Positions 1,627 through 58,319 of a stretch of DNA of 64,000 nucleotides are shown piece by piece (positions within the stretch are counted from its first letter, which is position 1; each line of letters begins with the position of its first letter). Under the pieces are notes generated by a model. It made no database searches. It was not told the origin of the DNA and was given only the letters and a program-made list of their open reading frames with translations. A program made the translations under genes and the position numbers. The stretch covers positions 1 through 64,000 of the forward strand of contig NZ_JSEP01000025.1 of the NCBI RefSeq assembly GCF_001624695.1, in the 5' to 3' direction. The stretch is from Labrenzia sp. OB1. Lineage in GTDB: Bacteria > Pseudomonadota > Alphaproteobacteria > Rhizobiales > Stappiaceae.

Positions 1627-1629
1627 GTT

Positions 1630-1992: not shown

Positions 1993-2168
1993 CCAGCTCA
2001 CTCCCGATGCTGCAATTGCGTAAAGAAGTATCTTCACCCTAACGCCCGCCTTGCACCTTCAACAAGCTGTCAAAAGCAGCGATCAGGCTCAAATCGGTTT
2101 GGGCCGACGGATTTTATTTTCCAAACATGCAAAAATTGTGCGGCGCACTCTTGAATGAAGCGATGAAG

Positions 2169-2204
2169 ACATATATTTGTCCGATATATCGGTCCGGTAT
2201 ATGT
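2169..2204. promoter_or_regulatory. Palindromic operator candidate upstream of padR-RND operon
   Basis: ACATATA and TATATGT arms bracket 36 bases whose centre contains the perfect 12-base palindrome CCGATATATCGG (2181-2192). A near copy of GTCCGATATA, GTCCGGTATA, overlaps it. It lies about 100 bases before the padR start and is the only strong symmetry in the gap between 1992 and 2303. PadR proteins commonly autoregulate from AT-rich dyads, so this is the likely operator (inference). Confidence 0.6.
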
Positions 2205-2302
2205 GACTTTTGACATGCCTGCCAATCGTCACCGTCCCTGCCATTCCCTCAATTGGGGAAGACCGTCAATCCGGGAGCAAGCTCCCGGTCGCGGAGAAGT
2301 CA

Positions 2303-2860: not shown

Positions 2861-2886
2861 GCCTGAAGTTTCGGAGACAAGACATA

Positions 2887-3990: not shown

Positions 3991-6900
3991 TAGACTTGCT
4001 CGAAGGCGTTCTTCGCCGCCCAAAGACTGTTTTCGTTATGATGCTGGCGCTGATCATCGCCGGCACCGCGACCTATATTTCCATTCCGAAGGAAGCAAGT
4101 CCGGATATCGACCTGCCGATCTTCTACATCTCCGTCACCCAGCAGGGCATCTCGCCGGAGGATTCCGAGCGTCTGCTGGTACGGCCGATGGAAACGGAGT
4201 TGCGCGGTCTGGACGGCCTGAAGGAAATCACCGCGATCGCGTCGGAAAGCCACGCGGGCATCGTCCTTGAATTCGACATCTCGTTCAACAAGGACGAGGC
4301 GCTGGCGGACGTACGCGACAAGGTCGATCAGGCGAAAAGCAACCTGCCGGAGGAAGCCGAAGAGCCGACGATCACCGAGATGAACTTCGCGCTGGCGCCG
4401 ACAATGATCATCGCCCTTTCGGGAAATGTTCCCGAGCGCACGCTCTATCAGCATGCCCGCAGGCTCAAGGATGAAGTCGAGGCGATCGATTCCGTGCGGT
4501 CGGCCGATCTCACCGGCCACCGGGAAGAGCTGCTGGAAGTTCTGATAGATACCCAGAAGCTGGAATCCTATTCGATCACCCAGCAGGAACTGCTCAATAC
4601 GCTGCAGCTCAACAACCAGCTGGTTCCGGCCGGTTTCATCGATGGCGGCAAGGGCCGGTTCAACGTCAAGGTTCCCGGTCTCGTCGAAACCGCCGAAGAT
4701 GTTTACACCCTGCCCTTGAAACAGAGTGGCGAAGGTGTCGTCACCCTGGCAGATGTTGCCGAAATCCGCCGTACTTTCAAGGATGCGAACGCCTATACGC
4801 GCGTCAACGGCAATCCCGCGATCTCCCTTCAGGTCGTCAAGCGCATCGGCACGAACATCATCGAGAACAACACTGCCGTGCGGGAAGTCGTCGAAAAGGC
4901 ATCGGAGGACTGGCCGGAGACGATCCGTGTCGACCTGATGCTCGACCAGTCGAACAACATCTTCGAAGTGCTCGGCTCGCTGCAGTCCTCGATCCTCACC
5001 GCGATCTTCCTGGTGATGGTCCTGGTTCTGGCGGCGCTCGGATTGCGATCCGCGCTGCTTGTCGGCCTGGCGATCCCGACCTCCTTCATGGTCGGCTTCC
5101 TCATCCTCGGCGGCATCGGCCAGACGGTCAACAACATGGTCATGTTCGGCCTCGTGCTGACGGTTGGCCTGCTCGTCGATGGCGCGATCGTGATGACCGA
5201 ATATGCCGACCGGAAGATCCAGGAAGGCATGGAGGACCGGGAGGCCTATATCCGGGCCGCGAAGCTGATGTTCTGGCCGATCGTGTCCTCGACCGCGACG
5301 ACACTGGTGGCCTTCCTGCCAATGCTGTTGTGGCCGGGTGTCGCCGGCGAGTTCATGAGCTATCTGCCGATCATGGTGATCATCGTCCTGACCGCGTCGC
5401 TGTTCACAGCGATGGTGTTCCTGCCGGTGACCGGCGGCATACTGGCCCAGGTATCGCACTGGATGAGCCGCCATGCCACTGCGCTGCTGGCCCTGACCAT
5501 TGCATTGCTCTTCGCTCTCGCGGTGATCTCAGGCCCGTTCGTGCCACTCGTCCTGTCCGGGTTCGTTTCAGCGGGCCTGATCCTGCCCCTGAAAATCGTG
5601 CTTGGCGTTCTGGCCTTTGTCCTGATCGGCTATTTCTCCTACCGCATCCTGCGTCCGTTCGTTCTCTGGTCGCAGGCCCGCGCGGCCAAACGCGCCGAAC
5701 TGGACAGAATTGAAGCAGCCAAGCTCTCTGGGTCGGAAGCCTTCGACGTCAAGAATGTCCGCGGGTTCACCGGCATCTATGTCCGGGTTCTGAAGCTTTT
5801 TGCCGGCAATCCCGTCGGCAACATAGCCGCGCTTCTTCTGCTGCTTGTCAGTTGCACCGCAATCATCGGCGCCTTCGTGGCCAATCCCACCGGTGTTCAG
5901 TTCTTCATCGACGAAGAACCGGAACAGGCCGTGGTGCTGGTTTCGGGACGGGGCAACATGTCGGCGGGCGAGGCGCGCGATCTGGTCGTCCAGGTGGAAG
6001 ACCGGATCATGACGATACCCGGCATTGAGAACGTCATCACCAATGCGTTCCCTCCGGGAGGCTCTTCCGGCGGCCCGGCCGTCGGTGACGTCCAGGACAA
6101 GCCTGCCGACGTCATGGGTGAAATCAACATCGAGCTTGCCGATTTCTGCTGCCGGCGTGTGGCGAAGGAAATCTTCGCCGACATCCGCACCCAGACCGCG
6201 GATATCCCCGGCATCAAGGTTGAAACCCGCAAGATCGAAGGTGGTCCGCCGACCGGCAAGGATATCCAGCTTGAAGTCAAATCGACCGACTATGACGACA
6301 TGGTCGCGGCGGTTGCCAGGATCCGGGACCACATCAATGGCGAGGACGTCCTGATGGACCAGGAGGACGACCGTCCCCTGCCCGGCATCGAATGGCAGAT
6401 TTCCATCGACCGGGAACAGGCCGGCCGTTACCAGGCCCATATCGCCTCTGTCGGCAACATGGTCCAGCTTGTCACCAACGGTGTCCTGATCGGGACCTAC
6501 CGTCCGGGCGACAGCGAGGATGAGGTCGATATCCGCGTCCGGCTGCCGGAAGACGAACGCAGTATCGGCCGCTTCGACCAGTTGCGCCTGCAGACCAGTC
6601 TCGGCCTGGTGCCTATGGCGAATTTCGTCAGCCGCGTACCGGCGCCGAAGGTCTCGGAAATCGTTCGCCGGGACGGGCTCTATTCGATGATGGTGAAAGC
6701 CACCGTCAACCCGGAATCCGGATCGAACCCGACAGAACAGGTCGCGGCCTTCCAGACGTGGCTGGACGGTCAGCAATGGCCGGACAACGTTTATCTGAAG
6801 TTCCGCGGCGCGGACGAGGACCAGCAGGAATCGGGCGAGTTCCTGATGAAGGCGATGGTGGCCTCGCTGTTCCTGATGTTCCTGATTCTGCTGACCCAAT

Positions 6901-7553
6901 TCAACTCGTTCTATCAGACCTTCCTGACTCTCTCGACGGTGATCCTGTCGGTCTTCGGTGTGCTGCTGGGGATGCTTGTCACCAACCAGCCCTTCTCGAT
7001 CATCATGACCGGGACCGGGGTGGTCGCGCTGGCGGGGATCGTGGTGAACAACGCCATCGTTCTGATCGACACCTACAACCGGTTCATTGAAGACGGGCTG
7101 CCACCGCTGGACGCGATCCTGAAAACATCCGCCCAGCGAATCCGGCCGATCCTGCTGACCACGATCACCACCATCGCGGGTCTCATCCCGATGGCGACCA
7201 TGGTCAACTTCGACTTCTTCAACCAGGTGATCGCCTATGGCGGCATTACAGCGGTGTGGTGGGTGCAATTGGCGACGGCGGTCATCTCCGGCCTCGCCTT
7301 CTCGACCCTGCTGACGCTTCTGATGATCCCCGTGATGATCGCAGCGCCGAGTGTGTGGTCCAATCTGTTCGCGACCATCATCGCCTTCTTCCAGCGCAAG
7401 CTGGGCTACACGATGCTGCCGGCGACAGGCGGAGCACATGTCGATACGCTGGAGGAGAACAATGACAGGGTTGCCGCGACGGTGGTCACGCTGCCGAAAC
7501 CGGCCTCCCCCAAGCTTCCCCCGCAAGAGGACCTGCCGCACGCAGCGGAGTGA
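3987..7553 (+). CDS. RND-family efflux permease
   Basis: The 1188-residue inner-membrane pump has the AcrB-type layout: TM1 near the N-terminus, porter domain, TM2-6, then a duplicated half. The TM4 proton-relay motif reads GLLVDGAIVM with a single Asp (D398) where AcrB has a pair. TM10 has GIVVNNAIVLID, lacking the AcrB lysine; this fits simpler RND subfamilies. It is about 140 residues longer than AcrB. Part of the excess is a hydrophobic block (about residues 495-555) plus a charged linker between the halves. The start overlaps the adaptor stop; a longer upstream frame is not used. Substrate unknown; PadR control suggests an aromatic or drug-like inducer. Confidence 0.9.
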   Translation: MIDLLEGVLRRPKTVFVMMLALIIAGTATYISIPKEASPDIDLPIFYISVTQQGISPEDSERLLVRPMETELRGLDGLKEITAIASESHAGIVLEFDISFNKDEALADVRDKVDQAKSNLPEEAEEPTITEMNFALAPTMIIALSGNVPERTLYQHARRLKDEVEAIDSVRSADLTGHREELLEVLIDTQKLESYSITQQELLNTLQLNNQLVPAGFIDGGKGRFNVKVPGLVETAEDVYTLPLKQSGEGVVTLADVAEIRRTFKDANAYTRVNGNPAISLQVVKRIGTNIIENNTAVREVVEKASEDWPETIRVDLMLDQSNNIFEVLGSLQSSILTAIFLVMVLVLAALGLRSALLVGLAIPTSFMVGFLILGGIGQTVNNMVMFGLVLTVGLLVDGAIVMTEYADRKIQEGMEDREAYIRAAKLMFWPIVSSTATTLVAFLPMLLWPGVAGEFMSYLPIMVIIVLTASLFTAMVFLPVTGGILAQVSHWMSRHATALLALTIALLFALAVISGPFVPLVLSGFVSAGLILPLKIVLGVLAFVLIGYFSYRILRPFVLWSQARAAKRAELDRIEAAKLSGSEAFDVKNVRGFTGIYVRVLKLFAGNPVGNIAALLLLLVSCTAIIGAFVANPTGVQFFIDEEPEQAVVLVSGRGNMSAGEARDLVVQVEDRIMTIPGIENVITNAFPPGGSSGGPAVGDVQDKPADVMGEINIELADFCCRRVAKEIFADIRTQTADIPGIKVETRKIEGGPPTGKDIQLEVKSTDYDDMVAAVARIRDHINGEDVLMDQEDDRPLPGIEWQISIDREQAGRYQAHIASVGNMVQLVTNGVLIGTYRPGDSEDEVDIRVRLPEDERSIGRFDQLRLQTSLGLVPMANFVSRVPAPKVSEIVRRDGLYSMMVKATVNPESGSNPTEQVAAFQTWLDGQQWPDNVYLKFRGADEDQQESGEFLMKAMVASLFLMFLILLTQFNSFYQTFLTLSTVILSVFGVLLGMLVTNQPFSIIMTGTGVVALAGIVVNNAIVLIDTYNRFIEDGLPPLDAILKTSAQRIRPILLTTITTIAGLIPMATMVNFDFFNQVIAYGGITAVWWVQLATAVISGLAFSTLLTLLMIPVMIAAPSVWSNLFATIIAFFQRKLGYTMLPATGGAHVDTLEENNDRVAATVVTLPKPASPKLPPQEDLPHAAE

Positions 7554-7574
7554 AGCCCCCAAAAGAACACAGGA

Positions 7575-7602
7575 GGGCCGCCGGCATCCGGCGGCCCTTT
7601 TT
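7575..7602 (+). terminator. Rho-independent terminator of the RND operon
   Basis: A perfect 10-bp stem (GGGCCGCCGG / CCGGCGGCCC) closes a three-base loop and is followed directly by TTTTT. It lies 22 bases after the permease stop. Confidence 0.92.
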
Positions 7603-7809
7603 GTTGAAAAGCTGTGTTCTCACCGTAGTCCTCACGGTGACGCGACGCGTGAACCGGGACCGGCGCCACAAGTCCTTTTTGTTCGAGTGATCTTTTCTAC
7701 CGGCAGACATCGCCTTTCCAATCCCCGATCCGCTCTGCGTCCGGGACAGCGCGCGGCTGTTTGCATGCGAACTGAACGAATGGTTTTCAGTCCTGCGGAA
7801 GCCCCGCAC

Positions 7810-7838
7810 TTGAAAAAAGATCCGACCACCCATATAGT
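7810..7838 (+). promoter_or_regulatory. Sigma70-type promoter of the marR-GNAT gene
   Basis: TTGAAA at 7810-7815 and TATAGT at 7833-7838 are separated by exactly 17 bases. A start about seven bases downstream would give a leader near 23 nt. The -10 box lies inside the inverted repeat at 7828-7860. Confidence 0.7.
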
Positions 7839-7860
7839 TGCGCAATACAACTATATGGGT
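7828..7860. promoter_or_regulatory. Perfect 13-bp inverted repeat, probable MarR operator
   Basis: ACCCATATAGTTG and CAACTATATGGGT are exact inverted copies separated by CGCAATA. The repeat covers the -10 box and ends seven bases before the ATG of the MarR-GNAT gene. It could block both transcription and, in RNA, ribosome access. Autoregulation is inferred from position and from the habits of MarR proteins. Confidence 0.75.
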
Positions 7861-7867
7861 TTTAAAA

Positions 7868-8818
7868 ATGACCACAGCCTCTCCCGCCCTTGTGAAGGAC
7901 GTCCGTGCCGCTTCCCGGAAGCTGGTCCGGGAATTCGGCTTTCTCGACAAGACTATCGCCGGAACCAACCTTTCCGGTTCGGGCGTTCACGCCATCATGG
8001 AAATCGGACTTCATCCTGGCATCACGGCCAAAGAGCTCGCGGCCAGGCTGAAACTGGAAAAATCCACCATCAGCCGGCTGCTGAAAACTCTCGAAAAGCG
8101 GGACGAGATTGAATTGACCCGGTCGGAGACAGATCGCCGGGCCTTCGGTTTGAACCTGACGGCGGAAGGCAAGAAGACCTTCCGGACAGTCGATCAGTTT
8201 GGTGAGCGGCTGGCACGCGGCGCTCTTTCAAGGGTAAGGGGGATGACCGCGGAAACCGTGGCAGAAAGCCTCTCCGCCTATGCCGATGCACTGCCATCGC
8301 CGGAAGAGGCAACGGACGCATTGCCACCCTCCCTTGAAATCGTGGAAGGCTATCAGACCGGCATGATCGGTGACATCGCGGCGATGCATGCCCGCACCCA
8401 CGGACCGATCGTCGGCATGGGACCAGCCTTTGAAAGCCTTGTCTCACAAGCCATGGCCGAGTTCATGCCGCGTGTCGGCAATCCGGCGAACAACAGCTGG
8501 AGCGTTGTCGAGGACGGGCAGATCATCGGGTCGATTACCATTGATGGTGAAGACCTTGCCGGCAACATCGCCCATCTGCGCTGGTTCATCCTGTCCGAGC
8601 GCCTGCGCGGCAAGGGGCTGGGCAAGGCCCTCCTCCTGAAAGCTCTGACCCATTGCGACAGCCTCGGGTTCGATGAGGTCCATCTCTGGACCCTGAAGGG
8701 TCTCGATGCCGCCCGCGGCCTGTACGAGAAACACGGTTTCGTGCTTGCCGAAGAATATGTCGGTGACCAATGGGGCAAGCACGTCAGTGAGCAGATGTTT
8801 GTCCTTAAGCGCCCCTGA
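7868..8818 (+). CDS. MarR-type regulator fused to GNAT acetyltransferase
   Basis: The 316-residue protein has an N-terminal MarR winged helix (about 10-145; LHPGITAKELAARLKLEKST is the recognition region, followed by an RSETDRRAF wing). Its C-terminal GNAT domain (about 160-315) carries the acetyl-CoA loop near LRGKGLGKALL and a GLYEKHGF motif at the end. Such fusions are a known bifunctional class; acetyl-CoA or a substrate may tune DNA binding. I use ATG 7868 rather than an upstream TTG that lies inside the operator. It is convergent with a separate GNAT gene 15 bases away. Confidence 0.88.
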   Translation: MTTASPALVKDVRAASRKLVREFGFLDKTIAGTNLSGSGVHAIMEIGLHPGITAKELAARLKLEKSTISRLLKTLEKRDEIELTRSETDRRAFGLNLTAEGKKTFRTVDQFGERLARGALSRVRGMTAETVAESLSAYADALPSPEEATDALPPSLEIVEGYQTGMIGDIAAMHARTHGPIVGMGPAFESLVSQAMAEFMPRVGNPANNSWSVVEDGQIIGSITIDGEDLAGNIAHLRWFILSERLRGKGLGKALLLKALTHCDSLGFDEVHLWTLKGLDAARGLYEKHGFVLAEEYVGDQWGKHVSEQMFVLKRP

Positions 8819-8833
8819 CAAACTTCGCTTATC

Positions 8834-9361
8834 CTAATCTATCCAAAGCGTGCGTTCCTGCCATGGCGGCGGTACGACCAACCGGCCGGTCCCGGGAACT
8901 TTACTCCCGTCCAGATTCAGAAATTGCCACGCCGCGGCCCAGTCTTCAGGGATTTCATAAGGGGGCGCAATCGGGCACCGGGGCATGAAACCGAAGCGCC
9001 CGTAGTATTCCGGATCGCCCAGAACAAGCACCTGCACCGTCTGCCAGGCTGCCAGATGCTCCAACCCGGCCCGGACCAGACGGCTGCCGATGCCCTGCTT
9101 GCGGACGGAGCGCGCGCTGCAAAGCGGTCCAAGCAATGCGAGCGTGTGACCGCCCGGTTCGACGGTACATCTGGTGTAGATCACATGACCGACAATATCA
9201 TCGCCCGAAACCGCCACCAGCGACAGGACACCGTCCCGCGCCCGCAGCAACTGACGGACCAGTGGAACCAGATCCTCCTCCGGAAACGCCGACCTGTAGA
9301 GAGTTTCGATAGATTGAATGTCGGCTTCCGTGCTCGGGCGCAGGTCTGTTTCTTCGGTCAC
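8834..9361 (-). CDS. GNAT-family N-acetyltransferase (YhbS-like)
   Basis: The 175-residue cytoplasmic protein has a complete GNAT fold: an N-terminal LRPSTEADI strand-helix, a central beta-hairpin (GHVIYTRCTV), the acyl-CoA binding loop SVRKQGIGSRLV, and YYGRFGFMP near the end. This pattern is typical of the COG3153/YhbS group. The acceptor is unknown. It is convergent with the MarR-GNAT gene, so the two acetyltransferase genes face each other without sharing a transcript. Confidence 0.85.
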   Translation of the reverse strand: MTEETDLRPSTEADIQSIETLYRSAFPEEDLVPLVRQLLRARDGVLSLVAVSGDDIVGHVIYTRCTVEPGGHTLALLGPLCSARSVRKQGIGSRLVRAGLEHLAAWQTVQVLVLGDPEYYGRFGFMPRCPIAPPYEIPEDWAAAWQFLNLDGSKVPGTGRLVVPPPWQERTLWID

Positions 9362-9474
9362 GACTGAAGCTCCTCAGGGCGTCTGCCTTGTATTGCCGGG
9401 CCCGGTTGCCAGGGCAAGCGGATATCCGTCTCCGGGCGGGAGGCGGGATTCCCCCCCCGCCCACCGGTCGCGTT

Positions 9475-10224
9475 TCATCCTTTGCAGATAGAGTTGCCAC
9501 CGTCGCACACCATAGCCGATCCTGTGACAAAGGAGGCTGCGTCGGAGAGCAGAAACTCGGCGGCCCGCGCAATTTCATCAGGCTCCGCCATCCGCTTGAG
9601 CACGTGCAGTCCCGCGACATAGTCATGAAACGCAGGGTCGTCGCCAGCCATCTCCGTTTTGGTCCCCCCCGGCAACAAGGCGTTCACGCGGATGTTGTCT
9701 GTTCCGTGTTCCACTGCAAGTACCTGGGTCAGACCGATCAGGCCGGCCTTCGCCGCCGCATAGGCGGCCATCCCCGGCAGACCGATGGTGTGACCGACAA
9801 AGGAGGAAGTGAAGACGATCGATCCGGCTCCGCGGGCTTTCATTGCGGGAATCTGATACTTTGCCGCCAGAAAGGCGCTGGTGAGATTTGTCGTGACGAC
9901 CTCGTTCCAGGAGTCCAGGGTCATTTGCGGAACAGGGCCCATGTCGCCCAGCATCCCGGCGTTGTTGAAGGCCGCATCCAGGCCGCCAAAGGCCTCTTCG
10001 GCGGCCCTGACGGAGTTTTCCGAGAAATCCGGGTCCGCGACATCGCCTGCGAAAACGCAAATCCGTCCGGCCGCCTCCGGCAACGCCTCCCTCACCTCTT
10101 CCAGCTTGTTCTGGCGTCGGGCCGCAAGTACGAGGTTGGCGCCTTTGCCGGCAAACAGCCGCGCTGCGGCTGCACCGATGCCGCTGCTGGCGCCCGTGAT
10201 CAGAACAGTTTTTCCGGTTAACAT
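9475..10224 (-). CDS. Short-chain dehydrogenase/reductase
   Basis: The 249-residue protein is a classical SDR. TGASSGIG at residues 10-17 binds the nucleotide; NNAG follows near 88; the catalytic Ser lies in VFTSSF and YAAAK supplies the Tyr and Lys. The ending VTGSAMVCDGG is usual for the FabG-like group. Arg after the second strand (AARRQ) suggests NADP preference. It has no close operon partner, lying 97 bases downstream of pssA on the same strand. Substrate cannot be told from sequence. Confidence 0.87.
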   Translation of the reverse strand: MLTGKTVLITGASSGIGAAAARLFAGKGANLVLAARRQNKLEEVREALPEAAGRICVFAGDVADPDFSENSVRAAEEAFGGLDAAFNNAGMLGDMGPVPQMTLDSWNEVVTTNLTSAFLAAKYQIPAMKARGAGSIVFTSSFVGHTIGLPGMAAYAAAKAGLIGLTQVLAVEHGTDNIRVNALLPGGTKTEMAGDDPAFHDYVAGLHVLKRMAEPDEIARAAEFLLSDAASFVTGSAMVCDGGNSICKG

Positions 10225-47397: not shown

Positions 47398-48081
47398 ATG
47401 TCTGTTCTGGTGTTCGATCTCGACGGCACCCTGGTGTCTTCCATGGAGGACCTGGTTGCCACGCTGAATGTCGTGATGACCACGGCCGGCCACTCCGCGA
47501 TCCCGCAAGAAGATGTCGCCCACATGGTCGGCATGGGGGCGAAAGTTCTCATCCAGCGCGGGCTGGACTACAACGGCGTCGCCTGGACAGACCCCGAAAT
47601 CGCGCCGCTCTACAGCCATTTCCTCGACCACTACGCAGGCAATTTAGCCGTTCGGACGCGGCCGTTCGAAGGCGTGCTTCCGGCCCTTGAAGTGTTCCGC
47701 AACGAAGGCTGGAAACTCGCGGTGTGCACAAACAAGGCCGAAAGGCTGACCCTTCCGCTGCTCAAGGAGCTCGATCTCGGCAAATATTTCGACGCCGTTG
47801 TCGGAGGCGACACCTTTGCGGTTTCCAAGCCCCATGCCGAACCGGTTCACGGCGCCATTGAGCGGGCCGGCGGCCAGGTGGCGGGCTCCATCATGATCGG
47901 TGACAGCGGCACCGATATCAACGCTGCCCGCAACGCAGGCATTCCGGTAATCGCGGTCGATTTCGGTTACACGCCCGTGCCGGTGCGCGACCTCGCACCG
48001 GACCGGGTGATTTCCCATTTCGACGAATTGGCCGCAGCCGTCGCAGAGCTTTCACCGCAACGTCCCGGCGCCGTAACCTGA
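47398..48081 (+). CDS. HAD-family phosphoglycolate phosphatase-like protein
   Basis: The 227-residue protein has the HAD motifs: VFDLDGTL with nucleophile D7 and D9, VCTNK (motif II Thr), the Lys in motif III before KPHAEPV, and MIGDSGTDINAA (motif IV). Its length and GMGAKVLIQRGL cap segment match the Gph group that hydrolyses 2-phosphoglycolate from DNA repair. It is 73 bases after the MCP gene. Confidence 0.86.
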   Translation: MSVLVFDLDGTLVSSMEDLVATLNVVMTTAGHSAIPQEDVAHMVGMGAKVLIQRGLDYNGVAWTDPEIAPLYSHFLDHYAGNLAVRTRPFEGVLPALEVFRNEGWKLAVCTNKAERLTLPLLKELDLGKYFDAVVGGDTFAVSKPHAEPVHGAIERAGGQVAGSIMIGDSGTDINAARNAGIPVIAVDFGYTPVPVRDLAPDRVISHFDELAAAVAELSPQRPGAVT

Positions 48082-50333: not shown

Positions 50334-50408
50334 GGGCGATTAGCTCAGCGGGAGAGCACTCCCTTCACACGGGAGGGGTCACTGGTTCAATCCCAGTATC
50401 GCCCACCA
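50334..50408 (+). tRNA. tRNA-Val, anticodon CAC
   Basis: The cloverleaf is complete: 7-bp acceptor GGGCGAT/ATCGCCC, 4-bp D stem GCTC/GAGC, 5-bp anticodon stem CTCCC/GGGAG with loop TTCACAC, TΨC stem ACTGG/CCAGT with loop TTCAATC, and encoded CCA. It reads GTG codons. It stands alone. Confidence 0.97.
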
Positions 50409-50670: not shown

Positions 50671-52524
50671 ATGGCCACGCAAACCGCTGCGAACCCTCTT
50701 CGGGAGAAGATGCTGAAGGGACTTGCCCTGCAAAAGGCAGGCGAGGTCAAGGAAGCGCAGCGGTGCTACAAGCAGGTCCTCAAGAAAGCGCCCAACAATG
50801 CCGATGCGCTCAATCTGCTGGGCGTCACCTACCGGCAACTGGGCAATCCCAAGCGGGCGATTGAATATATTCAAAAAGCCATCGCGGCCAACAACAACCA
50901 AGCCCCGTTTTACGCCAATCTGGCGCGGGCCATGATGGATGTGGGGACGGATTCGGAAAGCCTGCTGCTCGTGTGCGACAAGGCCTTGTCGATCAACCCC
51001 AAAGAGCGCGAAGCCCGGAACATGAAGTCCATCGCGCTTACACAGTTGAAAAGATACGAGGAGGCTGAACTGATCCTGCAGTCCCTGCTCGTCGAGGATC
51101 CCGACTATCTGGAGGCCTACCAGAACTACGCGAACCTGCTCATGAATGCCAACAGGCCGGAGCATGCCATCACCTTCCTGACCAAGTCGATCATGCTCAG
51201 CCCGGACAACCCAATCAACTACATTCACAGATCGCGCTGCAGGCAGAAACTCAAGCAATTCGAGCCCTCCCAGTACGAGTTGAGCGATGCGCTGGAGCGT
51301 TTTCCCGACAACAGCGATATCCAGCACGAGGCCGCCCGGTTGCTTTTCAGCATGAACGAAACCGCGAAAGCCATTCAATACGCGCGCAAAAGCTTTGAAA
51401 CGGACCCCAACAATTTCCACAAGTGCGTAACCATGGGAGTAACCTTGCTGATGCACGGCGATCAGGTGGAATCGCTCGAGATGATGAAGCTGGCTGAAAA
51501 GATTTCTGGAGGGACGAACCAGACGGTCAACTGGAACCTCTCGCTCGCCTATCTTGCCAATGGCGATCTGGAAAACGGCTGGCGATTGCACACAGCCCGT
51601 TTTGGCGATGCCGCTGCCCAGGTCACACGCAGGAAGTTCAACGTGCCTGCCTGGGAAGGCGAGGACATTTCCGACAAGACAGTTCTCGTGTGGGCCGATC
51701 AGGGGCTCGGCGATGCCCTGAAAGCGGGGACAATGCTGCCGCAGCTTGCCGAGAAGGCCGGAAAGGTCATTGTCGAGGTCTCGGAAAAAGGCGCGGCCTT
51801 AATGCAGCACTCCTTTCCCCAGATCGAGTGCCGTGCAGCCCTGATGAACGCGGAACTCGAAGCGACCGCCTCGGATTTCGATGTGACAGCCAATATCAGT
51901 GATCTGGTCGAGTTCTTCCGTCCGAATCTCGAGGCCTTCAAATCTGCTCCAAGCCCCGTCTATTCGTTCCAGAAAGACCGGGCCCGGGAGTATCTGGAAA
52001 GATTGCGAGGCTATGAGGACAAGCCGGTTATCGGGTTTTCCTGGCGGTCCCAGAACCTGGCAGCGAACCGCGCGAGATATTATCTCTCCGCACCCGCCAT
52101 TTCGCCTGTCCTGGAGTCGCGCGACGCGATCTTCGTGAACCTGCAATACAAGGCAATTCAAAAGGAAATCGAGTTCTTCCAGACGAAGTTTCCCGAAAAA
52201 TTTCAGTTTTTCGAGGATGTAGATCTGTTCGACGACCTGCTCGGCGCCGCGGCCCTGACCGGTATCTGCGACTTTGTCGTTTCCGCCAATACGAGCGTTG
52301 CCGATATGGCGGGTATCCTCAACATTCCGTGCATCCGCTTCGGTCAGCAGGAACCCGCCCTGCTTCTCGGGCAGAAAAACCCGCCCTGGTATCCGACCAT
52401 GACCTATATGCGTCCCTATACGGACCGGCCGTGCTCGGAATTCGTTCCAGAAATTATCGCGGAACTGGATCGCCAGATGGAAAACTGGACGCCGGAGAGA
52501 CGGAACAAGCGTCTCGGCCTTTAA
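50671..52524 (+). CDS. TPR protein with glycosyltransferase-like C-terminus
   Basis: The 617-residue cytoplasmic protein has about seven tetratricopeptide repeats (residues 10-300), such as ALNLLGVTYRQLGNPKRAIEY. Its C-terminal half (about 340-600) is like ADP-heptose/O-GlcNAc transferase-type folds, with ISDKTVLVWADQGLGDAL and NTSVADMAGILNIPCI. Such TPR-GT proteins often glycosylate flagellins or other surface proteins. It converges on the nonulosonate operon (16-base gap to the methyltransferase), which fits a transferase for that sugar; this is inference. Confidence 0.83.
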   Translation: MATQTAANPLREKMLKGLALQKAGEVKEAQRCYKQVLKKAPNNADALNLLGVTYRQLGNPKRAIEYIQKAIAANNNQAPFYANLARAMMDVGTDSESLLLVCDKALSINPKEREARNMKSIALTQLKRYEEAELILQSLLVEDPDYLEAYQNYANLLMNANRPEHAITFLTKSIMLSPDNPINYIHRSRCRQKLKQFEPSQYELSDALERFPDNSDIQHEAARLLFSMNETAKAIQYARKSFETDPNNFHKCVTMGVTLLMHGDQVESLEMMKLAEKISGGTNQTVNWNLSLAYLANGDLENGWRLHTARFGDAAAQVTRRKFNVPAWEGEDISDKTVLVWADQGLGDALKAGTMLPQLAEKAGKVIVEVSEKGAALMQHSFPQIECRAALMNAELEATASDFDVTANISDLVEFFRPNLEAFKSAPSPVYSFQKDRAREYLERLRGYEDKPVIGFSWRSQNLAANRARYYLSAPAISPVLESRDAIFVNLQYKAIQKEIEFFQTKFPEKFQFFEDVDLFDDLLGAAALTGICDFVVSANTSVADMAGILNIPCIRFGQQEPALLLGQKNPPWYPTMTYMRPYTDRPCSEFVPEIIAELDRQMENWTPERRNKRLGL

Positions 52525-52539: not shown

Positions 52540-53418
52540 TCAGCCTGGGTTTCTGGCGACTGCCATCAGCGTATCCGTTGCATCGATCCTGTTCAGAGCC
52601 GCCTCGTAGACAGACAGGAGATCCGGCGTATCGAGCGCCGCAAGCGTCGATTTATGGCCGCCAGGCCGGCCGGCCGAGAGCCAATGGAGATGATTTGACA
52701 GCGGATAACGCTGGACCCCTTCCACAACCGGATTTTCAAATCCCGCTGCCGCCAGGAGCCGTCGCAAACTGTCCCTAGTGTGCAGGACCAGATGCTGGCT
52801 CCACAATGTGAAAGCCTTGAAGGCATCACATTTCAACTCGCGCAGCAACAGGTCTCCGGCATGAGGCACTTCAACAATCAGGGTTCCACCGGGCTTGAGC
52901 ACGCGTTTCAGCTCCCGCAGCACCGGCAGCGGATCGGGCAAATGTTCCAGGACGTGAAAACTGACGGCTGTATCCATGCTGCCGTCTTCAAGATCTGCCA
53001 GGGAGGTGTGGCAAGCGATGCCCTCGTCCCTGAGCGCCCGCACATAGTCTTTTTGCAGTTCCACACCGCAGCAGGACGCGGTCTCGTCTTGAACGTTGCG
53101 GAGAAAGCTGCCGTCGCCGCACCCGAAGTCTACGATATTCCGTCCGCAGACAAAGGGTTTGCAGGCAGAGGACCGGCGGGTGGCATCGCGGGTGATTTCG
53201 TAATCGCGCGAACCGGTTTTCGCCAGATTGACCTGTCGATACTCCCCCTCCTCGTAGATTTCGTCGCCGCCATAAAAGCCGTCGATATAGATGACGCCTG
53301 ACTGGCGGTCCCTGTAAACGGTGACATCGCCGCGGTCGCGGGTTCCTTTCGCGAAGACTTCCCGATGCGCCTCGCTCGCCGCACCGATTTCCGACAGGGT
53401 CTCGAATATGTTCGTCAT
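52540..53418 (-). CDS. SAM-dependent methyltransferase
   Basis: The 292-residue protein has the class I Rossmann fold: motif I IVDFGCGDGSF (95-105), an acidic VELQKDYV strand 2, HVLEHLPDPL as motif III-like region and LKPGGTLIVEVPHAGDLLL. A helical extension follows. It is the last gene of the minus-strand nonulosonate cluster, 36 bases after the cytidylyltransferase; GAGG lies eight bases before its ATG. It may methylate the sugar or its carrier (inference). Confidence 0.85.
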   Translation of the reverse strand: MTNIFETLSEIGAASEAHREVFAKGTRDRGDVTVYRDRQSGVIYIDGFYGGDEIYEEGEYRQVNLAKTGSRDYEITRDATRRSSACKPFVCGRNIVDFGCGDGSFLRNVQDETASCCGVELQKDYVRALRDEGIACHTSLADLEDGSMDTAVSFHVLEHLPDPLPVLRELKRVLKPGGTLIVEVPHAGDLLLRELKCDAFKAFTLWSQHLVLHTRDSLRRLLAAAGFENPVVEGVQRYPLSNHLHWLSAGRPGGHKSTLAALDTPDLLSVYEAALNRIDATDTLMAVARNPG

Positions 53419-53454
53419 CGCAGCAGGCCTCGCCGGGCGTTCGGTTTGTGGGGT

Positions 53455-54153
53455 CTATCCCAGGTGTGGTTTGCGTCCACACGCCACCGCAAAGGCCTCC
53501 AGGGCAAGCCAATCGCGCGGAGTGTCGAGATCGATTTCCGTCGCGTCTGGGAGAACGACCGGCACGCTTTTTCCGAAAAACCGCTGCCCCGCTTCAATGA
53601 ACCCGCTTTTGCGCAGTGCATAGATCGCTCCCGTTTCCCTGAATTGTTCCGGCCGGTCCTGACGACGCTGGCGGGGTTTTGAGACGTTGTGATTGACGCC
53701 AATCCCCGTGCCGTCGGGCGCGATTTCCCAAAGAAACGCATGCACTTCAACGACCGAAAAAACCGTATCGGCGGCCAGGCGTTCGCCTGTACGCACCACC
53801 AGATCGATCTCGTCCGGTGTGGTCAGCGGAGACGTGCATTGCAGGAAGACGATCGTCTCGGCATCTTCACATTCCCTGCAGGCTTCGACCGCGTGTAAAA
53901 GCGCTGCTTCCGAAGAGGCTTCGTCGCCGGCAATCTCCGCTGGCCGCAACACGCCGGTCGCGCCGTATTTGGCGGCAACGTCGAGAATCCCGGGATCATC
54001 GCTGGAAACGACCACATCTGAAACGGTCTCGGCGGCCAGCGCAGCGCGTATGGTATGGGCAATCAGGGGGACTCCCAGGAAGGGTTTGACGTTCTTTCCC
54101 GGAATACCCTTGGACCCGCCCCGTGCGGGAATGATCGCAACTGCGCGCTTCAT
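53455..54153 (-). CDS. CMP-nonulosonate cytidylyltransferase (NeuA-like)
   Basis: The 232-residue enzyme starts AVAIIPARGGSKGIPGKN, the CTP-binding loop of NeuA/KdsB-type transferases, followed by SDDPGILDVAAKYGA and VFLQCTSPL. It ends with a DLDTPRDW segment that carries metal-binding Asp residues. It would activate an eight- or nine-carbon 2-keto sugar acid as its CMP derivative. The start 54153 is 75 codons inside the open frame. Specificity (sialic, legionaminic, pseudaminic or Kdn) cannot be assigned from sequence alone. Confidence 0.87.
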   Translation of the reverse strand: MKRAVAIIPARGGSKGIPGKNVKPFLGVPLIAHTIRAALAAETVSDVVVSSDDPGILDVAAKYGATGVLRPAEIAGDEASSEAALLHAVEACRECEDAETIVFLQCTSPLTTPDEIDLVVRTGERLAADTVFSVVEVHAFLWEIAPDGTGIGVNHNVSKPRQRRQDRPEQFRETGAIYALRKSGFIEAGQRFFGKSVPVVLPDATEIDLDTPRDWLALEAFAVACGRKPHLG

Positions 54154-54173
54154 GGCGTTCAATCCGCGTTCCC

Positions 54174-55205
54174 TCAAAGACCGGGGTTGCTGACGGCTGC
54201 CTTTTTCAGATCGTAGATCGCCATGCGGCGGGCAATCTCCGGCGCAAGGATCTCCGGCTTCCAGCCGAGAAGCTTCTGTGCCTTGCTGTTGTCGCCGCGC
54301 AGATAGACAACATCCGAAGCGCGGAAATAGCGGGGATCGACATAGGCGACCAGTTTGCCCGTCTTGCGATTGTAGCATTTCTCCTCAAGGCCCTCGCCTT
54401 CGGAATAGAGGTCGAACCCCACTTCCTGCGCCGCCATGAAAAGGAATTCCCGAACAGTGTATTCGGTATTGGTCGAGATGACGAAGTCGTCCGGCTCACC
54501 GTGATCCAGCATCTTGATCATCATGTCGGTATATTCGGGGGCATATCCCCAGTCACGAACGCTGCTGAGATTTCCCAGCGGCATGGCTTCGGCGTTCTGA
54601 AGCTTGATGCGGGCGAGCCAGCTGGTGATCTTTCTGGTGACGAACTCATAGCCACGCAGCTCGGATTCGTGATTGAAGAGAATGCCGGAGGTCGCGAACA
54701 TGTCATAAGCCTGCCGGTAGTTCACCACCAGGGAATGGGCAGCAAGCTTTGAAACCGCATAGGGGCTCAGCGGATTGAACGGCGTCTTTTCCGACTGCGG
54801 CTTTTCCAGCACGTCGCCGTACATTTCCGATGTCGATGCCTGATACAGCTTCGCATCCAGCTTCAGAAGACGCATGGCCTCCAGGATGTTCAACACACCC
54901 ATGTAGTTCACGTCGGACGTATAGTGCGGGAACTGGAAACTGTCCGCGACGAAACTCTGGGCCGCAAGATTGAAGATCATGTCAGGGCGAATTTCGTTCA
55001 GGACATTCTGCACATTGGCGAATTCCGTGACCTCGAGGGTGCACAGTTTCACTTTCTCGCGAATGCCGAGTTCCTTCAGGCGCCCCGTCTTGGACGTGCT
55101 TCCCCGCCGCATGGCGCCGTAGACCTCGTCGCCGCGCTCAAGAAGGGCGCGCGCCAGAAAAGCACCGTCCTGACCGGAAATGCCGGTGATCAGTACCTTA
55201 GCCAT
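54174..55205 (-). CDS. gmd: GDP-mannose 4,6-dehydratase-like enzyme
   Basis: The 343-residue SDR has GISGQDG at 8-14, the catalytic STSEMYG (124-130) and YAVSK (Tyr149, Lys153), and RKITSWLARIKLQ. It should convert GDP-mannose to GDP-4-keto-6-deoxymannose, or perhaps a related GDP-sugar. NHESELRGYEFVTRK departs from the usual NHESPRRG, so substrate may be changed. GGGAG lies just before the ATG, which overlaps the preceding gene's stop by eight bases. Confidence 0.87.
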   Translation of the reverse strand: MAKVLITGISGQDGAFLARALLERGDEVYGAMRRGSTSKTGRLKELGIREKVKLCTLEVTEFANVQNVLNEIRPDMIFNLAAQSFVADSFQFPHYTSDVNYMGVLNILEAMRLLKLDAKLYQASTSEMYGDVLEKPQSEKTPFNPLSPYAVSKLAAHSLVVNYRQAYDMFATSGILFNHESELRGYEFVTRKITSWLARIKLQNAEAMPLGNLSSVRDWGYAPEYTDMMIKMLDHGEPDDFVISTNTEYTVREFLFMAAQEVGFDLYSEGEGLEEKCYNRKTGKLVAYVDPRYFRASDVVYLRGDNSKAQKLLGWKPEILAPEIARRMAIYDLKKAAVSNPGL

Positions 55206-57021
55206 GTTGTTCTCCCAGTTGCAGGATCGCTTTTTCAAATCCGTCACCTTCGGACAGATGACCTTGCCAGATTTCCAGCACCTTGCGGCCCGGACCGTCG
55301 ATATAGGCACCCGGGTCTCCGAGATCGCCCTTGCCGAATTCGATGCCCTCGCCGTCGATGCCGACAGCGTCGGCTATATGCAGGTGACGGGCAAGCGGCA
55401 CGAGCTTTTCGTACCAGCCATGCCAGTCCTGCTTGGCGTAATTCGCGGAGAGGATAAGATGCGACAGATCCAGACACAGTTCCATGCCGATGTCATTGAG
55501 GATCTCGATGTCGTCCGCCCCGCAGAACATGTCCAGTATATCCGCCCCGCCGAAGTACCAGGCGATGCGCGGCAGCCACTGGGGATAAACAGGTATGCCC
55601 CGTTTCCGGCCGGTCCGGTCCAGATAATCCTGCAGGCGGCCGTAGGTTGCCCGCTTGCCCTCCTCAAGCAGTCTGGAGAAACTACCGACGACAGGAACCG
55701 CCGCACCGGTCCTCGACTCCAGTTCCAGCGCCAGATCCACGCAGGTGCCGATCACGCGGTCACTGCCCGCAACCGTCGCCTCATCGCTCGAGAGCGGATC
55801 GATCAGCGTCTTGCTGTCGATATAGTCGGGAATGTGAATGGAATAGTGACGCGACAGGTCAAGCCGCGCGAGCCCCTCCTCCATCGAACCGCCAAAGGTG
55901 GCGACCTCTTCATACGACAGGTGCAGTTCGTAGTTCTTGATTGGAAAACGGGTCTGCAGCGCCTTGGCGTCATGCAGGCGGACCGGGATGGAGAGCTGTT
56001 TTTCATCGCAGAACGCGATCAGCTTCTTGTTCAGCGGCGGTTTGGGGCCGCTGAAATGGAGATCTGAAATGGCGGAACCTTCGGTTACCCGCCGTTTGAC
56101 CGCCTTCAAGCCGCGTTGTTTCACATCCGCCCAGGTGAGGCCTTTCCTCGGTGCCTTGATGACGGTGTTTCGCGCATCGAGCGTTTCGCCCGGAGCGATG
56201 TCCCGGCTGGCATAGAGCGACGAGCCGAGGTTCTGCATGTTGATGCGCTCACCCTGATTGACCTCGCGCCGTCCGGTGCCCTGAACCGTCTCATAGGCAT
56301 TTAGAAGTCTGCACATGCGGCGAAATTCTTCAGGATCGGAACTCGAGCTGTCGTCGATACCCTTGCCGAACTTGTCCATCGTCAGATGGCGTTCGAAAAC
56401 GGTCGCGCCGTTGGCCGCTGCAACAAGACAGACCTCCCAGTCCTGATCGTGACTGGAATAGCCAACGGGCAATGCGGTGCGTTCCTTCAGAGTCCGGAGA
56501 AACCCCATCTGCTGATTTCCGAGCAGAACCGGATAATTGGAGATGCAGTGAAGAAAGATGACATCCGGGATGTCGCGGGTACGGTCAATCGCATTGAAGA
56601 TATCTTCTTCCGAGTGGCCGCCGGTGCTCAGGATCAAGGGTTTCCCGAAGCCTGCCATGGCCGAAATCAGGTCTTCGTTGAGAAGTTCCGCCGAAGGGAC
56701 CTTGAAGAAATCGAAGCGGGAAATGTCATCGCCGAAATCCGCGGCGTCCCCGGATTTGAAAAAGCTGATCCCCGCGGCCATTCCCTGCTGCTTTATCAGG
56801 TCCACCAACTGCAGAACGCGCTCGGGCGGGATGTAATTGTCGTCGATCTCCCGGGAAAGGATCTCGTCGCCAATCTCATTCGTCGCCTGATAGAAGCCGT
56901 GCTTTGCCCGATACTGGAACTTGGCGCCCCAGGCGCCGGCTTCCGCCGCGATGTTTATGAGCTGCCCGGCAACTTCGGTAGACCCGCGGTGGTTGATGCC
57001 AAGTTCAGCAATGATTTTCAT
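55198..57021 (-). CDS. Nonulosonate synthase fused to a TIM-barrel isomerase-like domain
   Basis: The 607-residue protein joins three parts. Residues 1-245 are a NeuB-type synthase: GINHRGSTEVAGQLI, FLHCISNYPV, GYSSHDQDW and ERHLTMDK, with H191 and H212 spaced 21 residues apart like the metal His of NeuB. Residues 265-323 are an SAF/antifreeze-like lid (LYASRDIAPGETL). Residues 333-607 are a xylose-isomerase-like (AP endonuclease 2) barrel, ending in HLHIADAVGIDGEGIEFG-type sequence. Ordinary NeuB ends after the lid. The second barrel may prepare or modify the acceptor sugar (inference). First gene of the operon, overlapping gmd. Confidence 0.85.
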   Translation of the reverse strand: MKIIAELGINHRGSTEVAGQLINIAAEAGAWGAKFQYRAKHGFYQATNEIGDEILSREIDDNYIPPERVLQLVDLIKQQGMAAGISFFKSGDAADFGDDISRFDFFKVPSAELLNEDLISAMAGFGKPLILSTGGHSEEDIFNAIDRTRDIPDVIFLHCISNYPVLLGNQQMGFLRTLKERTALPVGYSSHDQDWEVCLVAAANGATVFERHLTMDKFGKGIDDSSSSDPEEFRRMCRLLNAYETVQGTGRREVNQGERINMQNLGSSLYASRDIAPGETLDARNTVIKAPRKGLTWADVKQRGLKAVKRRVTEGSAISDLHFSGPKPPLNKKLIAFCDEKQLSIPVRLHDAKALQTRFPIKNYELHLSYEEVATFGGSMEEGLARLDLSRHYSIHIPDYIDSKTLIDPLSSDEATVAGSDRVIGTCVDLALELESRTGAAVPVVGSFSRLLEEGKRATYGRLQDYLDRTGRKRGIPVYPQWLPRIAWYFGGADILDMFCGADDIEILNDIGMELCLDLSHLILSANYAKQDWHGWYEKLVPLARHLHIADAVGIDGEGIEFGKGDLGDPGAYIDGPGRKVLEIWQGHLSEGDGFEKAILQLGEQHG

Positions 57022-57287: not shown

Positions 57288-58100
57288 CTAGCCGACAAAC
57301 GCCCGTTCGACGACGAATTCAGCAGGCTTGTTGTTGGCGCCTTCGCTCAGGCCGGCTTCTTCCAGAAGCGCCTTCGTGTCGCGGAGCATGTCCATGGAAC
57401 CGCAAATCATGCCGCGATCGATGGCCGGATCCAGGGGCGGAACGCCAAGATCCTCGAACAGCTTCCCGGACTTGATCAGGTCGGTGATCCGCCCCTTGCG
57501 CGGAAACTCCTCGCGCGTCACGGACGTGTAATGCACCAGCTTGTCCTTTGCGAACCCGCCGATCAGCGGATCGTTGATGGTTTCCTGGACAAGGTCCTCA
57601 CCGTATTTCAACTCGGCGACTTCCCGGCAAGTATGCGTCAGGATGACCTGATCGAACTTTTCATAGGTGTCCGGATCGCGGATCAGACTGGCAAAGGGGG
57701 CAATGCCGGTTCCGGTGGAGAACATATAGACCCGCTTGCCTGGAACCAGCGCGTCGTTGACGAGCGTGCCGGTCGACTTCTTCTTCATCAGAACAGCGTC
57801 GCCGGGCTGGATTTTCTGCAGATGCGACGTCAGCGGTCCGTCCGGAACCTTGATCGAGAAGAACTCCAACTCCTCATCCCATGCCGGGCTCGCGATGGAA
57901 TAGGCCCGGTAGAGCGGTTTGCCGTCGATCATCAGGCCGATCATGACAAATTCGCCGGACCGGAACCGGAAGCTTGCCGGGCGGGTCATGCGGAAGCGGA
58001 ACAGATGGTCCGTGTAATGCTGGACGGTCTTCACTTCTTCCACGAACACACCGGCCGGTGCGGCGGCTTCCAGATCTGCGGGTTTGGCAAGTACATTCAT
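57288..58100 (-). CDS. fpr: Ferredoxin-NADP reductase
   Basis: The 270-residue flavoprotein exchanges electrons between NADPH and ferredoxin or flavodoxin. The FAD motif RAYS (65-68), the VPDGPLTSHL segment and the NADP loop GTGIAPFASLI match bacterial Fpr. It ends in a conserved FVVERAFVG aromatic-short tail of the plastid-unlike class. ATG 58100 begins MNVLAKPADLE; the frame continues upstream 35 codons without support. Confidence 0.93.
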   Translation of the reverse strand: MNVLAKPADLEAAAPAGVFVEEVKTVQHYTDHLFRFRMTRPASFRFRSGEFVMIGLMIDGKPLYRAYSIASPAWDEELEFFSIKVPDGPLTSHLQKIQPGDAVLMKKKSTGTLVNDALVPGKRVYMFSTGTGIAPFASLIRDPDTYEKFDQVILTHTCREVAELKYGEDLVQETINDPLIGGFAKDKLVHYTSVTREEFPRKGRITDLIKSGKLFEDLGVPPLDPAIDRGMICGSMDMLRDTKALLEEAGLSEGANNKPAEFVVERAFVG

Positions 58101-58319
58101 TTCAATCGGCTTCCGTGAGTCATCGCATAATGGGTATTGTGTCTCATGTAGCACCACTCGTGCGTTGACTTGAAGCAACTCTGGACCACTAAAGCGACTT
58201 GACACAAAAAAATCTTTCTAATTTTGGTCAGGTTTTGGGGCGCAGCCAACACGCCCTGTCGTTTCCGGCCACCCGGTCACGGGCAACCGGTTTCGATCAC
58301 GGCAAAGGCAACAGCTCCG

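What the first reader, a model, noticed from the sequence alone, without database searches (positions are those of the whole stretch)
52540..57021. Nonulosonate operon built around a synthase fused to a second TIM barrel
Sequence shows a 607-residue NeuB-type synthase that continues past the normal SAF lid (ends near 323) into a xylose-isomerase-like barrel (333-607). It overlaps a GDP-mannose 4,6-dehydratase-like gene and is followed by a cytidylyltransferase and a methyltransferase, all within 36-base gaps. Known neuraminate, legionaminate and pseudaminate sets need epimerase, aminotransferase and acetyltransferase genes, none of which is here. The combination suggests an unusual, possibly deaminated or methylated nonulosonate. 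That last step is inference.
Basis: partly seen in the sequence, partly recalled or inferred. Interest (0 to 1): 0.78.

Follow-up and report, generated by a model that had tools for sequence, protein, structure and literature searches.

The report
Swappable sialic-acid-like sugar operon
A marine Roseibium bacterium carries a four-gene operon, built around a two-barrel fusion enzyme, that probably makes an unusual nitrogen-free relative of sialic acid for a neighbouring, flagellin-modifier-like glycosyltransferase, and related species have other versions of this sugar operon at the same spot.

Summary
In detail: 57021-52540 (-) encodes a 607-aa NeuB-SAF synthase fused to a second, xylose-isomerase/endonuclease-IV-like TIM barrel, then a GDP-mannose-dehydratase-like protein, a CMP-sugar synthetase and a methyltransferase. 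The fusion is not new: it is a large family, and a Serratia NeuB with a similar extra domain is published (PMC9000132), needed for capsules that contain Kdn and Neu5Ac at about 20:1. New here: (1) the convergent neighbour 50671-52524 is a FlmG-like TPR-glycosyltransferase present in 45 of 45 genomes of the genus; in 35 of 37 a NulO synthase lies within 8 kb of such a gene, the fusion in 16, other synthases in 19. (2) The alternatives pair NeuB with a Kdn-9-phosphatase-like HAD (12 of 18 loci); fusion loci have none (0 of 16). (3) The fusions examined lack the Arg that positions ManNAc's N-acetyl group. (4) Barrel-2 active-site residues are invariant apart from a correlated Glu/His to Gln/other switch. 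Best reading: a deaminated (Kdn-type) NulO pathway without the HAD phosphatase, feeding flagellin-like O-glycosylation. Barrel 2's reaction and the sugar are unproven. A full pseudaminate set lies elsewhere in the genome with its own synthase.

The parts
55198..57021 (-). 607-aa fusion: NeuB-type synthase + SAF lid + second TIM barrel
56227..57021 (-). residues 1-265: NeuB catalytic barrel; K34, Q36, K107, Y163, S189, H191, E210, H212 shared with 58 of 58 non-fused relatives
56053..56226 (-). residues 266-323: SAF (antifreeze-like) lid; Ala290 stands where NmeNeuB has Arg314
55201..56049 (-). residues 325-607: xylose-isomerase/endonuclease-IV-like barrel; invariant E365, H367, H396, D518, H521, H546, H548, D551, E558, E583, H588; Gln481 at the beta-5 position
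54174..55205 (-). GMD-like short-chain dehydratase (paralogue of GDP-mannose 4,6-dehydratase; STSE and YxxxK motifs kept)
53455..54153 (-). CMP-sugar synthetase (cytidylyltransferase; best NCBIfam hit PseF, below its cut-off)
52540..53418 (-). SAM-dependent methyltransferase; a homologue lies in 12 of 18 non-fused cassettes, nine of them at 52-67% identity
50671..52524 (+). TPR + C-terminal glycosyltransferase domain, FlmG-like, 617 aa; convergent with the operon; in 45 of 45 genomes of the genus
57288..58205 (-). FAD/NAD-binding oxidoreductase ORF: conserved upstream border of the island (15 of 15 fused, 16 of 18 non-fused loci)

Best explanation
The operon is one version of an exchangeable nonulosonate (NulO) cassette that feeds a conserved FlmG-like TPR-glycosyltransferase. 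Shown: the gene content, the fusion, the genus-wide pairing of TPR-GT with a NulO synthase, the presence of NeuB + HAD phosphatase in place of the fusion + GMD-like pair in many other species, and conserved active sites. Inferred: the fusion's NeuB half condenses phosphoenolpyruvate with an unphosphorylated, non-acetamido hexose (mannose or a 6-deoxy/keto derivative made through the GMD-like enzyme), giving a Kdn-type sugar; the second barrel, a metal-dependent isomerase/epimerase or phospho/nucleotide-sugar hydrolase, prepares that hexose (or dephosphorylates the product), so that the HAD phosphatase is not needed; the third gene makes the CMP-sugar, the fourth methylates it or its glycan, and the TPR-GT transfers it to a protein, most likely flagellin.
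For: TPR-GT in 45 of 45 genomes of the genus; a NeuB within 8 kb in 35 of the 37 genomes covered by both searches, 16 fused and 19 not. HAD phosphatase (best phosphatase-specific NCBIfam hit: Kdn-9-phosphatase NF058599, 85.6 bits, below its cut-off of 180) in 12 of 18 fetched non-fused loci and 0 of 16 fused loci (15 loci, the window); GMD-like and barrel 2 in 16 of 16 fused and 0 of 18 non-fused; PseC-probe match in 1 of 18 and 0 of 16. No KdsC-type phosphatase anywhere in the window's genome at E <= 0.001; a GDP-mannose pyrophosphorylase is present. The position of NmeNeuB Arg314 is never Arg in 120 window-type proteins, 24 fused sequences (window + 23 loci, partly the same proteins), 120 CBS-type proteins and 4 further loci; R314A NmeNeuB is inactive (PMC6795526 passages). 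Serratia NeuB with an extra COG1082 domain is required for sialic acid and capsule; KL1/KL2 capsules have Kdn:Neu5Ac about 20:1 (PMC9000132). Barrel-2 polar residues invariant. TPR-GT resembles a TPR protein beside flbT in a Caulobacter sp. (E 3.7e-27); C. crescentus FlmG (596 aa, TPR + GT-B) glycosylates flagellins (PMC7591256 passages).
Against: No chemistry is known for any gene here. Loss of the Arg is not unique to fusions: of 20 near non-fused synthases with a residue there, 10 have Gly, one Ala, one Thr and only 8 Arg. The GMD-like gene is not universal beside fusions: none was matched next to those in L024, L026, L028, L031, L035, L037, L039 and L153-L156 (L031 ends 0.7 kb past the fusion), and L027 has LegB there. 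The HAD match is below its curated cut-off, and 6 of 18 non-fused loci have none. A different HAD-superfamily phosphatase (phosphoglycolate-phosphatase-like, below its cut-offs) lies at 47398-48081, 2.6 kb beyond the TPR-GT, and could act on sugar phosphates. In Serratia, Kdn was shown absent in the mutant lacking the whole variable region; the neuB mutants were tested by a colour assay and fell four-fold; that protein's sequence was not compared here. The target protein is not shown.
Confidence: 0.55

Rival explanations
1. Barrel 2 is a multi-metal phosphatase that replaces the HAD enzyme: the NeuB half makes Kdn-9-phosphate from mannose-6-phosphate and barrel 2 removes the phosphate; the GMD-like gene serves another sugar.
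For: The first two sequence-profile hits of barrel 2 in the PDB are MJ1311 (E 1.9e-13) and endonuclease IV 5zhz (E 8.4e-6); several endonuclease IV chains are among the structural matches. Fusion loci lack the Kdn-9-phosphatase-like HAD and the genome has no KdsC-type enzyme. Conserved His at the ends of beta-2 and beta-3. Several fusions have a cytidylyltransferase and no GMD-like neighbour.
Confidence: 0.2
2. The product is an ordinary N-acylated NulO (neuraminate or legionaminate type) whose precursor comes from genes elsewhere, and this locus is a partial set.
For: A full pseudaminate set exists on contig C68 and could supply intermediates. In L027 a fusion sits beside a LegB over its cut-off (514.8 against 475). 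Serratia KL1/KL2 capsules also contain some Neu5Ac.
Against: The C68 set has its own PseI over the cut-off (485.6 bits) and a cytidylyltransferase. The fusion misses the NeuB and PseI equivalog cut-offs (174.8 and 146.8 against 399.65 and 340.25). Arg314 is replaced. PseC-probe match in 0 of 16 fused loci.
Confidence: 0.15
3. The second barrel is non-catalytic (scaffold or regulatory) and the NeuB half alone matters.
For: The beta-5 Glu of the xylose-isomerase-like site is Gln in the window clade.
Against: Invariant E365, H367, H396, D518, H521, H546, H548, E558, E583 in the 121-sequence set and in 120 CBS-type proteins; Gln481 itself is invariant in both sets.
Confidence: 0.07

Closest known systems
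Serratia marcescens KL1/KL2 capsule NeuA/NeuB (PMC9000132)
   Same: NeuB with an added COG1082 isomerase/epimerase domain, next to a CMP-sugar synthetase, needed for sialic acid and capsule; Kdn is the main NulO of those capsules.
   Different: Longer protein (2241-bp ORF), probably with CBS domains (inferred from length; the sequence was not obtained); capsule, not a TPR-GT locus; the words GDP-mannose, methyltransferase and phosphatase do not occur in the paper's main text.
Kdn pathway with Kdn-9-P synthase, HAD phosphatase and CMP-Kdn synthetase (recalled; phosphatase model NF058599 in NCBIfam)
   Same: Deaminated NulO; 12 of 18 alternatives at this locus carry a HAD of that kind, below the model's cut-off in the one protein scored.
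   Different: The window locus has no such HAD; it has the fused barrel and the GMD-like gene instead.
CMP-legionaminate pathway with GDP-linked precursors (recalled; LegB model TIGR04180)
   Same: A nucleotide-sugar 4,6-dehydratase together with a NeuB-family synthase and a CMP-sugar synthetase.
   Different: The window enzyme is GMD-like, not LegB (96.4 against 475 bits); no LegC, LegH or LegG in the operon.
Caulobacter crescentus FlmG/NeuB flagellin glycosylation (PMC7591256)
   Same: TPR + GT-B transferase with a NulO pathway; about 600 aa; detectable GT-domain homology to a Caulobacter sp. protein.
   Different: Caulobacter uses pseudaminate; here the synthase is the fusion and no aminotransferase is in the operon.
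Shewanella oneidensis sfmABCDE (PMC3765264)
   Same: Operon with a NeuB-domain protein (290 aa) and a methyltransferase, needed to modify flagellin with a putative NulO carrying a further moiety that can be methylated (passages).
   Different: No fusion, GMD-like or cytidylyltransferase gene among the five genes described.

Membership tests
NeuB family of NulO synthases | PF03102 match over the gathering score | tested here: met
   141.1 bits against 22.1
NeuB family of NulO synthases | Catalytic Lys, Ser-x-His and Glu-x-His motifs | tested here: met
   K107, S189, H191, E210, H212 shared with 58 of 58 non-fused relatives
N-acetylneuraminate synthase (equivalog) | TIGR03569 cut-off | tested here: not met
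   174.8 bits against 399.65
Pseudaminate synthase (equivalog) | TIGR03586 cut-off | tested here: not met
   146.8 bits against 340.25
N-acetylneuraminate synthase (equivalog) | Arg contacting the N-acetyl group (NmeNeuB Arg314) | tested here: not met
   Ala290 in the window
Xylose-isomerase-like TIM barrel (AP_endonuc_2) | PF01261 over cut-off | tested here: inconclusive
   No hit at E 0.001 for the window protein; homologue P0010 29.9 bits, below 31.1; P0083 and P0104 53 bits, above
Xylose-isomerase-like TIM barrel (AP_endonuc_2) | Fold | tested here: met
Xylose-isomerase-like TIM barrel (AP_endonuc_2) | Glu-Asp-His-Glu metal ligands (pattern recalled) | tested here: inconclusive
   Asp518, His546, Glu583 invariant; the Glu position is Gln481 in the window; the assignment rests on strand positions and alignment, not on a metal-bound structure
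GDP-mannose 4,6-dehydratase (GMD) | TIGR01472 cut-off | tested here: not met
   370.6 bits against 415; G018 has both a 624.6-bit GMD and the 361.8-bit operon paralogue. The counterpart in L033 does pass (428.4)
GDP-mannose 4,6-dehydratase (GMD) | S/T-S-E and YxxxK catalytic motifs (recalled) | tested here: met
   STSE and YAVSK in the window protein
FlmG-type flagellin glycosyltransferase | N-terminal TPR and C-terminal GT domain, homologous to a Caulobacter TPR-GT | tested here: met
   TPR families by Pfam; residues 285-582 match a 598-aa ORF beside flbT, E 3.7e-27
FlmG-type flagellin glycosyltransferase | Modifies flagellin with a NulO | not testable with these tools
   Needs mutants and mass spectrometry
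HAD-dependent Kdn pathway | Kdn-9-P phosphatase gene with the synthase | tested here: not met
   No match to two HAD probes in the window or in 15 of 15 further fused loci; no KdsC-type match in the genome

The most novel reading that the evidence does not exclude
The fusion is a self-contained, phosphate-free Kdn-type synthase in which the second metal barrel makes or releases the hexose acceptor for the NeuB barrel; together with the GMD paralogue it yields a new 9-deoxy or 7-keto deaminated NulO, methylated and placed on flagellin, and this module is a non-homologous replacement for the NeuB + HAD-phosphatase module at one genomic locus.
Probability: 0.25. Interest if true: 0.75.

Novelty: new variant of a known kind. 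Interest (0 to 1): 0.52.

Why it matters
NeuB fused to an isomerase-like barrel is common in databases (names such as 'SpsE/sugar phosphate isomerase/epimerase'), yet no reaction for the second barrel turned up in my paper searches (open-licence papers only). The Roseibium locus offers a natural experiment: the same transferase, and mostly the same methyltransferase family, with either a NeuB + phosphatase pair or a fusion + GMD-like pair. That makes the barrel's role, and the existence of a Kdn-type route without the usual phosphatase in bacteria, directly testable in harmless marine bacteria, and suggests how surface sugars are exchanged between species.

Tried and rejected
Neuraminate or pseudaminate synthase identity: equivalog cut-offs missed. 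Locus as accessory of another NulO set: the only other NeuB match in the genome belongs to a complete pseudaminate-type set with a formyltransferase on C68. Canonical GMD: rejected on score and on the tree, where the GMD-like genes of the window, L016, L017, L018, L021, L033, L034 and L111 form a clade apart from four true GMDs (support 0.97, 18 sequences; L022 and L030 fall outside it). Against this, the L033 member passes the gmd cut-off (428.4 against 415). One clade member, L018, has lost the Lys of YxxxK, so dehydration need not be conserved in the clade.

Arg314 loss as proof of deamination: weakened by its absence in 12 of 20 non-fused near relatives; that comparison set was chosen by similarity to the window protein and is biased. 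Fold search with the whole fusion filled up with NeuB and related synthases, so barrel 2 was folded alone. A barrel-2 profile at E <= 1e-30 matched 5 of 398 Pseudomonadota genomes, the window's own included, all five inside open frames of 624 aa or more, so no free-standing close relative was found there. Neither protein search showed a Serratia name among its 120 listed rows, so the Serratia fusion was not compared residue by residue. The Shewanella sfm operon is an analogue only. PMC7371886 has none of the whole words isomerase, fusion, CBS, bifunctional or TIM in its main text. PMC8053191 describes Kdn detection but no fusion in the passages seen.

The adjacency count used rows copied by hand. 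Dropped: genomes outside the genus, eight genus genomes not covered, and all second TPR-GT copies except that of G017. G017 counts only through its second copy (41% identical, with PseB/PseC-like genes nearby), so with best copies alone the figure is 34 of 37. G024 and G036 have no NeuB near. G022 is among the 19 non-fused genomes but was not fetched, so HAD counts are of 18. One more fusion (G032, locus L111) lies away from that genome's TPR-GT and is not in the 16. The Fisher value (3.7e-5) and its chance estimate ignore relatedness. Presence or absence of HAD, GMD-like, PseC and PseB genes rests on tblastn with probes from this genus at E 1e-5 (window: 1e-3).
Full report
What is there. The window lies in a 6.0-Mb draft genome (G000, contig C19) of the genus Roseibium, judged by the names of its closest homologues (Roseibium, Labrenzia). 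On the minus strand, 57021 to 52540, four genes run head to tail with an 8-base overlap and gaps of 20 and 36 bases: a 607-aa NeuB fusion, a GMD-like protein, a cytidylyltransferase and a methyltransferase. The first 250 residues of the fusion are a NeuB barrel. An SAF lid and a xylose-isomerase-like barrel follow; they are too diverged in this one protein for Pfam but are found in homologues and in the models.

Is the fusion real and common? Yes. A search with the window protein gave 583 relatives, the 120 listed almost all full-length. A second, longer form (about 750 aa) has CBS domains in front. That form is abundant: 7982 of 7998 scored candidates reached E 1e-60, and the 120 listed bear PF03102 and PF01261 (how many of the unlisted are fused was not checked), with names from Aeromonas, Rheinheimera, Rhizobium and Magnetococcales among them. 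Within Pseudomonadota close relatives of barrel 2 are nevertheless patchy: 5 of 398 sampled genomes at E 1e-30, the window's own included. The nearest published case is Serratia marcescens (PMC9000132; abstract, section 10 and passages read). NeuB there has an extra COG1082 domain; neuB mutants have four-fold less sialic acid in a colour assay and lose the capsule; the capsules contain Kdn and Neu5Ac at about 20:1, and both are absent when the whole variable region is deleted. The authors note the extra domain and say that it may add properties; no function is given in the passages read.

The genomic setting is the main new result. The gene past the operon's end, 50671-52524 on the plus strand, is a TPR protein with a glycosyltransferase-like C-terminus. 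Residues 285-582 match a 598-aa TPR protein next to flbT in a Caulobacter species (E 3.7e-27), close in size and domain order to FlmG, which glycosylates flagellins in C. crescentus (PMC7591256 passages). The protein is present in 45 of 45 genomes of the genus. Among the 37 of them also searched with the fusion protein, 35 have a NeuB match within 8 kb of a TPR-GT (34 if only the best TPR-GT copy counts): the fusion in 16, other synthases in 19. The oxidoreductase gene that borders the island is found in 15 of 15 further fused and 16 of 18 non-fused loci, the AraC gene in 15 of 15 and 11 of 18, and a homologue of the window's methyltransferase in 15 of 15 and 12 of 18 (nine at 52-67% identity, three at 37-39%). 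What changes between them is the sugar cassette.

The alternatives tell what kind of sugar is made. Of 18 fetched non-fused loci, 12 carry a HAD phosphatase, fused to or following the cytidylyltransferase or separate; in the one protein scored, its best phosphatase-specific NCBIfam match is the Kdn-9-phosphatase (85.6 bits, below its cut-off of 180). Five carry a match to a B12-binding radical-SAM gene, shorter in two. A PseC-probe match was found in 1 of 18. Fifteen fused loci and the window have no match to the HAD or PseC probes, and all have the GMD-like gene and barrel 2. The window's genome has no KdsC-type phosphatase at E 0.001 but has a GDP-mannose pyrophosphorylase and six flagellin-family matches over the cut-off. 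Another HAD-superfamily gene, phosphoglycolate-phosphatase-like, lies at 47398-48081 beyond the TPR-GT; matches to it also lie near some fused and non-fused loci (3 of 15, 6 of 18; flanks differ), so it does not track the cassette type but is a possible sugar phosphatase. I read the pattern as two interchangeable solutions for a nitrogen-free NulO, one through a phosphorylated intermediate and one without it. That step is inference.

The GMD-like gene. In the genomes it scores 362-382 bits, while ten of the twelve matches over the 415-bit cut-off score 588-625 (the other two 424 and 454), and one genome has both kinds. GMD-type genes (best NCBIfam hit TIGR01472, 244-428 bits) sit directly after fusions in L018, L021, L022, L030, L033 and L111, and by similarity in L034. 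These include Alphaproteobacteria, a Thioploca MAG, a Bacteroidia MAG and Sulfurimonas MAGs (record titles). Beside other fusions it was not matched, is doubtful (L020 no family hit at E 1e-20, L025 147.6 bits) or is LegB (L027). A cytidylyltransferase match lies in the fetched flanks of 13 of the 22 non-Roseibium loci L018-L039 (several on short contigs) and in all four of L153-L156. So fusion plus CMP-sugar synthetase is the commoner core, and the GMD-like enzyme is a branch-specific addition that probably changes the hexose.

The rest of the genome. Contig C68 has PseB, PseC, PseG and PseI over their cut-offs, a cytidylyltransferase and a formyltransferase, near a capsule-synthesis gene. 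This is a second NulO pathway with its own synthase.

Limits. No product is known; the Serratia sequence was not compared; relatedness among the genomes of the genus inflates the counts; labels such as FlmG-like rest on homology and domain order. The paper library holds open-licence papers only.

Noticed in passing
L095 (G000:C68:1-16000), 4067-9988: Complete pseudaminate-type set (PseB, PseC, PseG, PseI over cut-offs) with a formyltransferase and a capsule-synthesis gene nearby: possibly a formylated pseudaminate.
   Followed up: partly
L132, L133, L134, L136, L138: Match to a B12-binding radical-SAM gene in alternative cassettes at the same locus (shorter in L133 and L136), suggesting a C-methylated or otherwise radically modified NulO.
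   Followed up: partly
L128 5472-6707, with similar arrangements in L129, L130, L131, L133, L136, L141, L143, L146: CMP-sugar synthetase fused to, or followed directly by, a Kdn-9-phosphatase-like HAD domain.
   Followed up: partly
window residues 444 and 481 of the fusion; alignment A2: Correlated switch in barrel 2: Glu481 goes with His444 (8 of 8), Gln481 with other residues (14 of 14), as if one metal site had been lost together.
   Followed up: partly
window 47398-48081 (+): Phosphoglycolate-phosphatase-like HAD gene (below its curated cut-offs) 2.6 kb from the TPR-GT; a conceivable sugar phosphatase.
   Followed up: partly
L153 (G103:C42), 1069-8224: CBS-type fusion (identical to Magnetococcales MAG protein P0121) with a cytidylyltransferase and a distant TPR-GT relative (23% identity) on the same strand nearby.
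   Followed up: no
L134, L135, L137, L139, L140: Polysaccharide pyruvyl-transferase-like genes (Pfam in L134 and L135, similarity in the others) in some alternative cassettes beside the TPR-GT.
   Followed up: no
L018 9815-10843: GMD-like neighbour of a fusion whose YxxxK Lys is Gln: probably a changed or lost dehydratase activity.
   Followed up: no
L142 (G010), 925-8681: TPR-GT locus with two NeuB-like genes and no match to the HAD or GMD-like probes.
   Followed up: no
window 50334-50408 (+): tRNA-Val (cac) gene just upstream of the TPR-GT, a possible anchor for cassette exchange; not tested.
   Followed up: no
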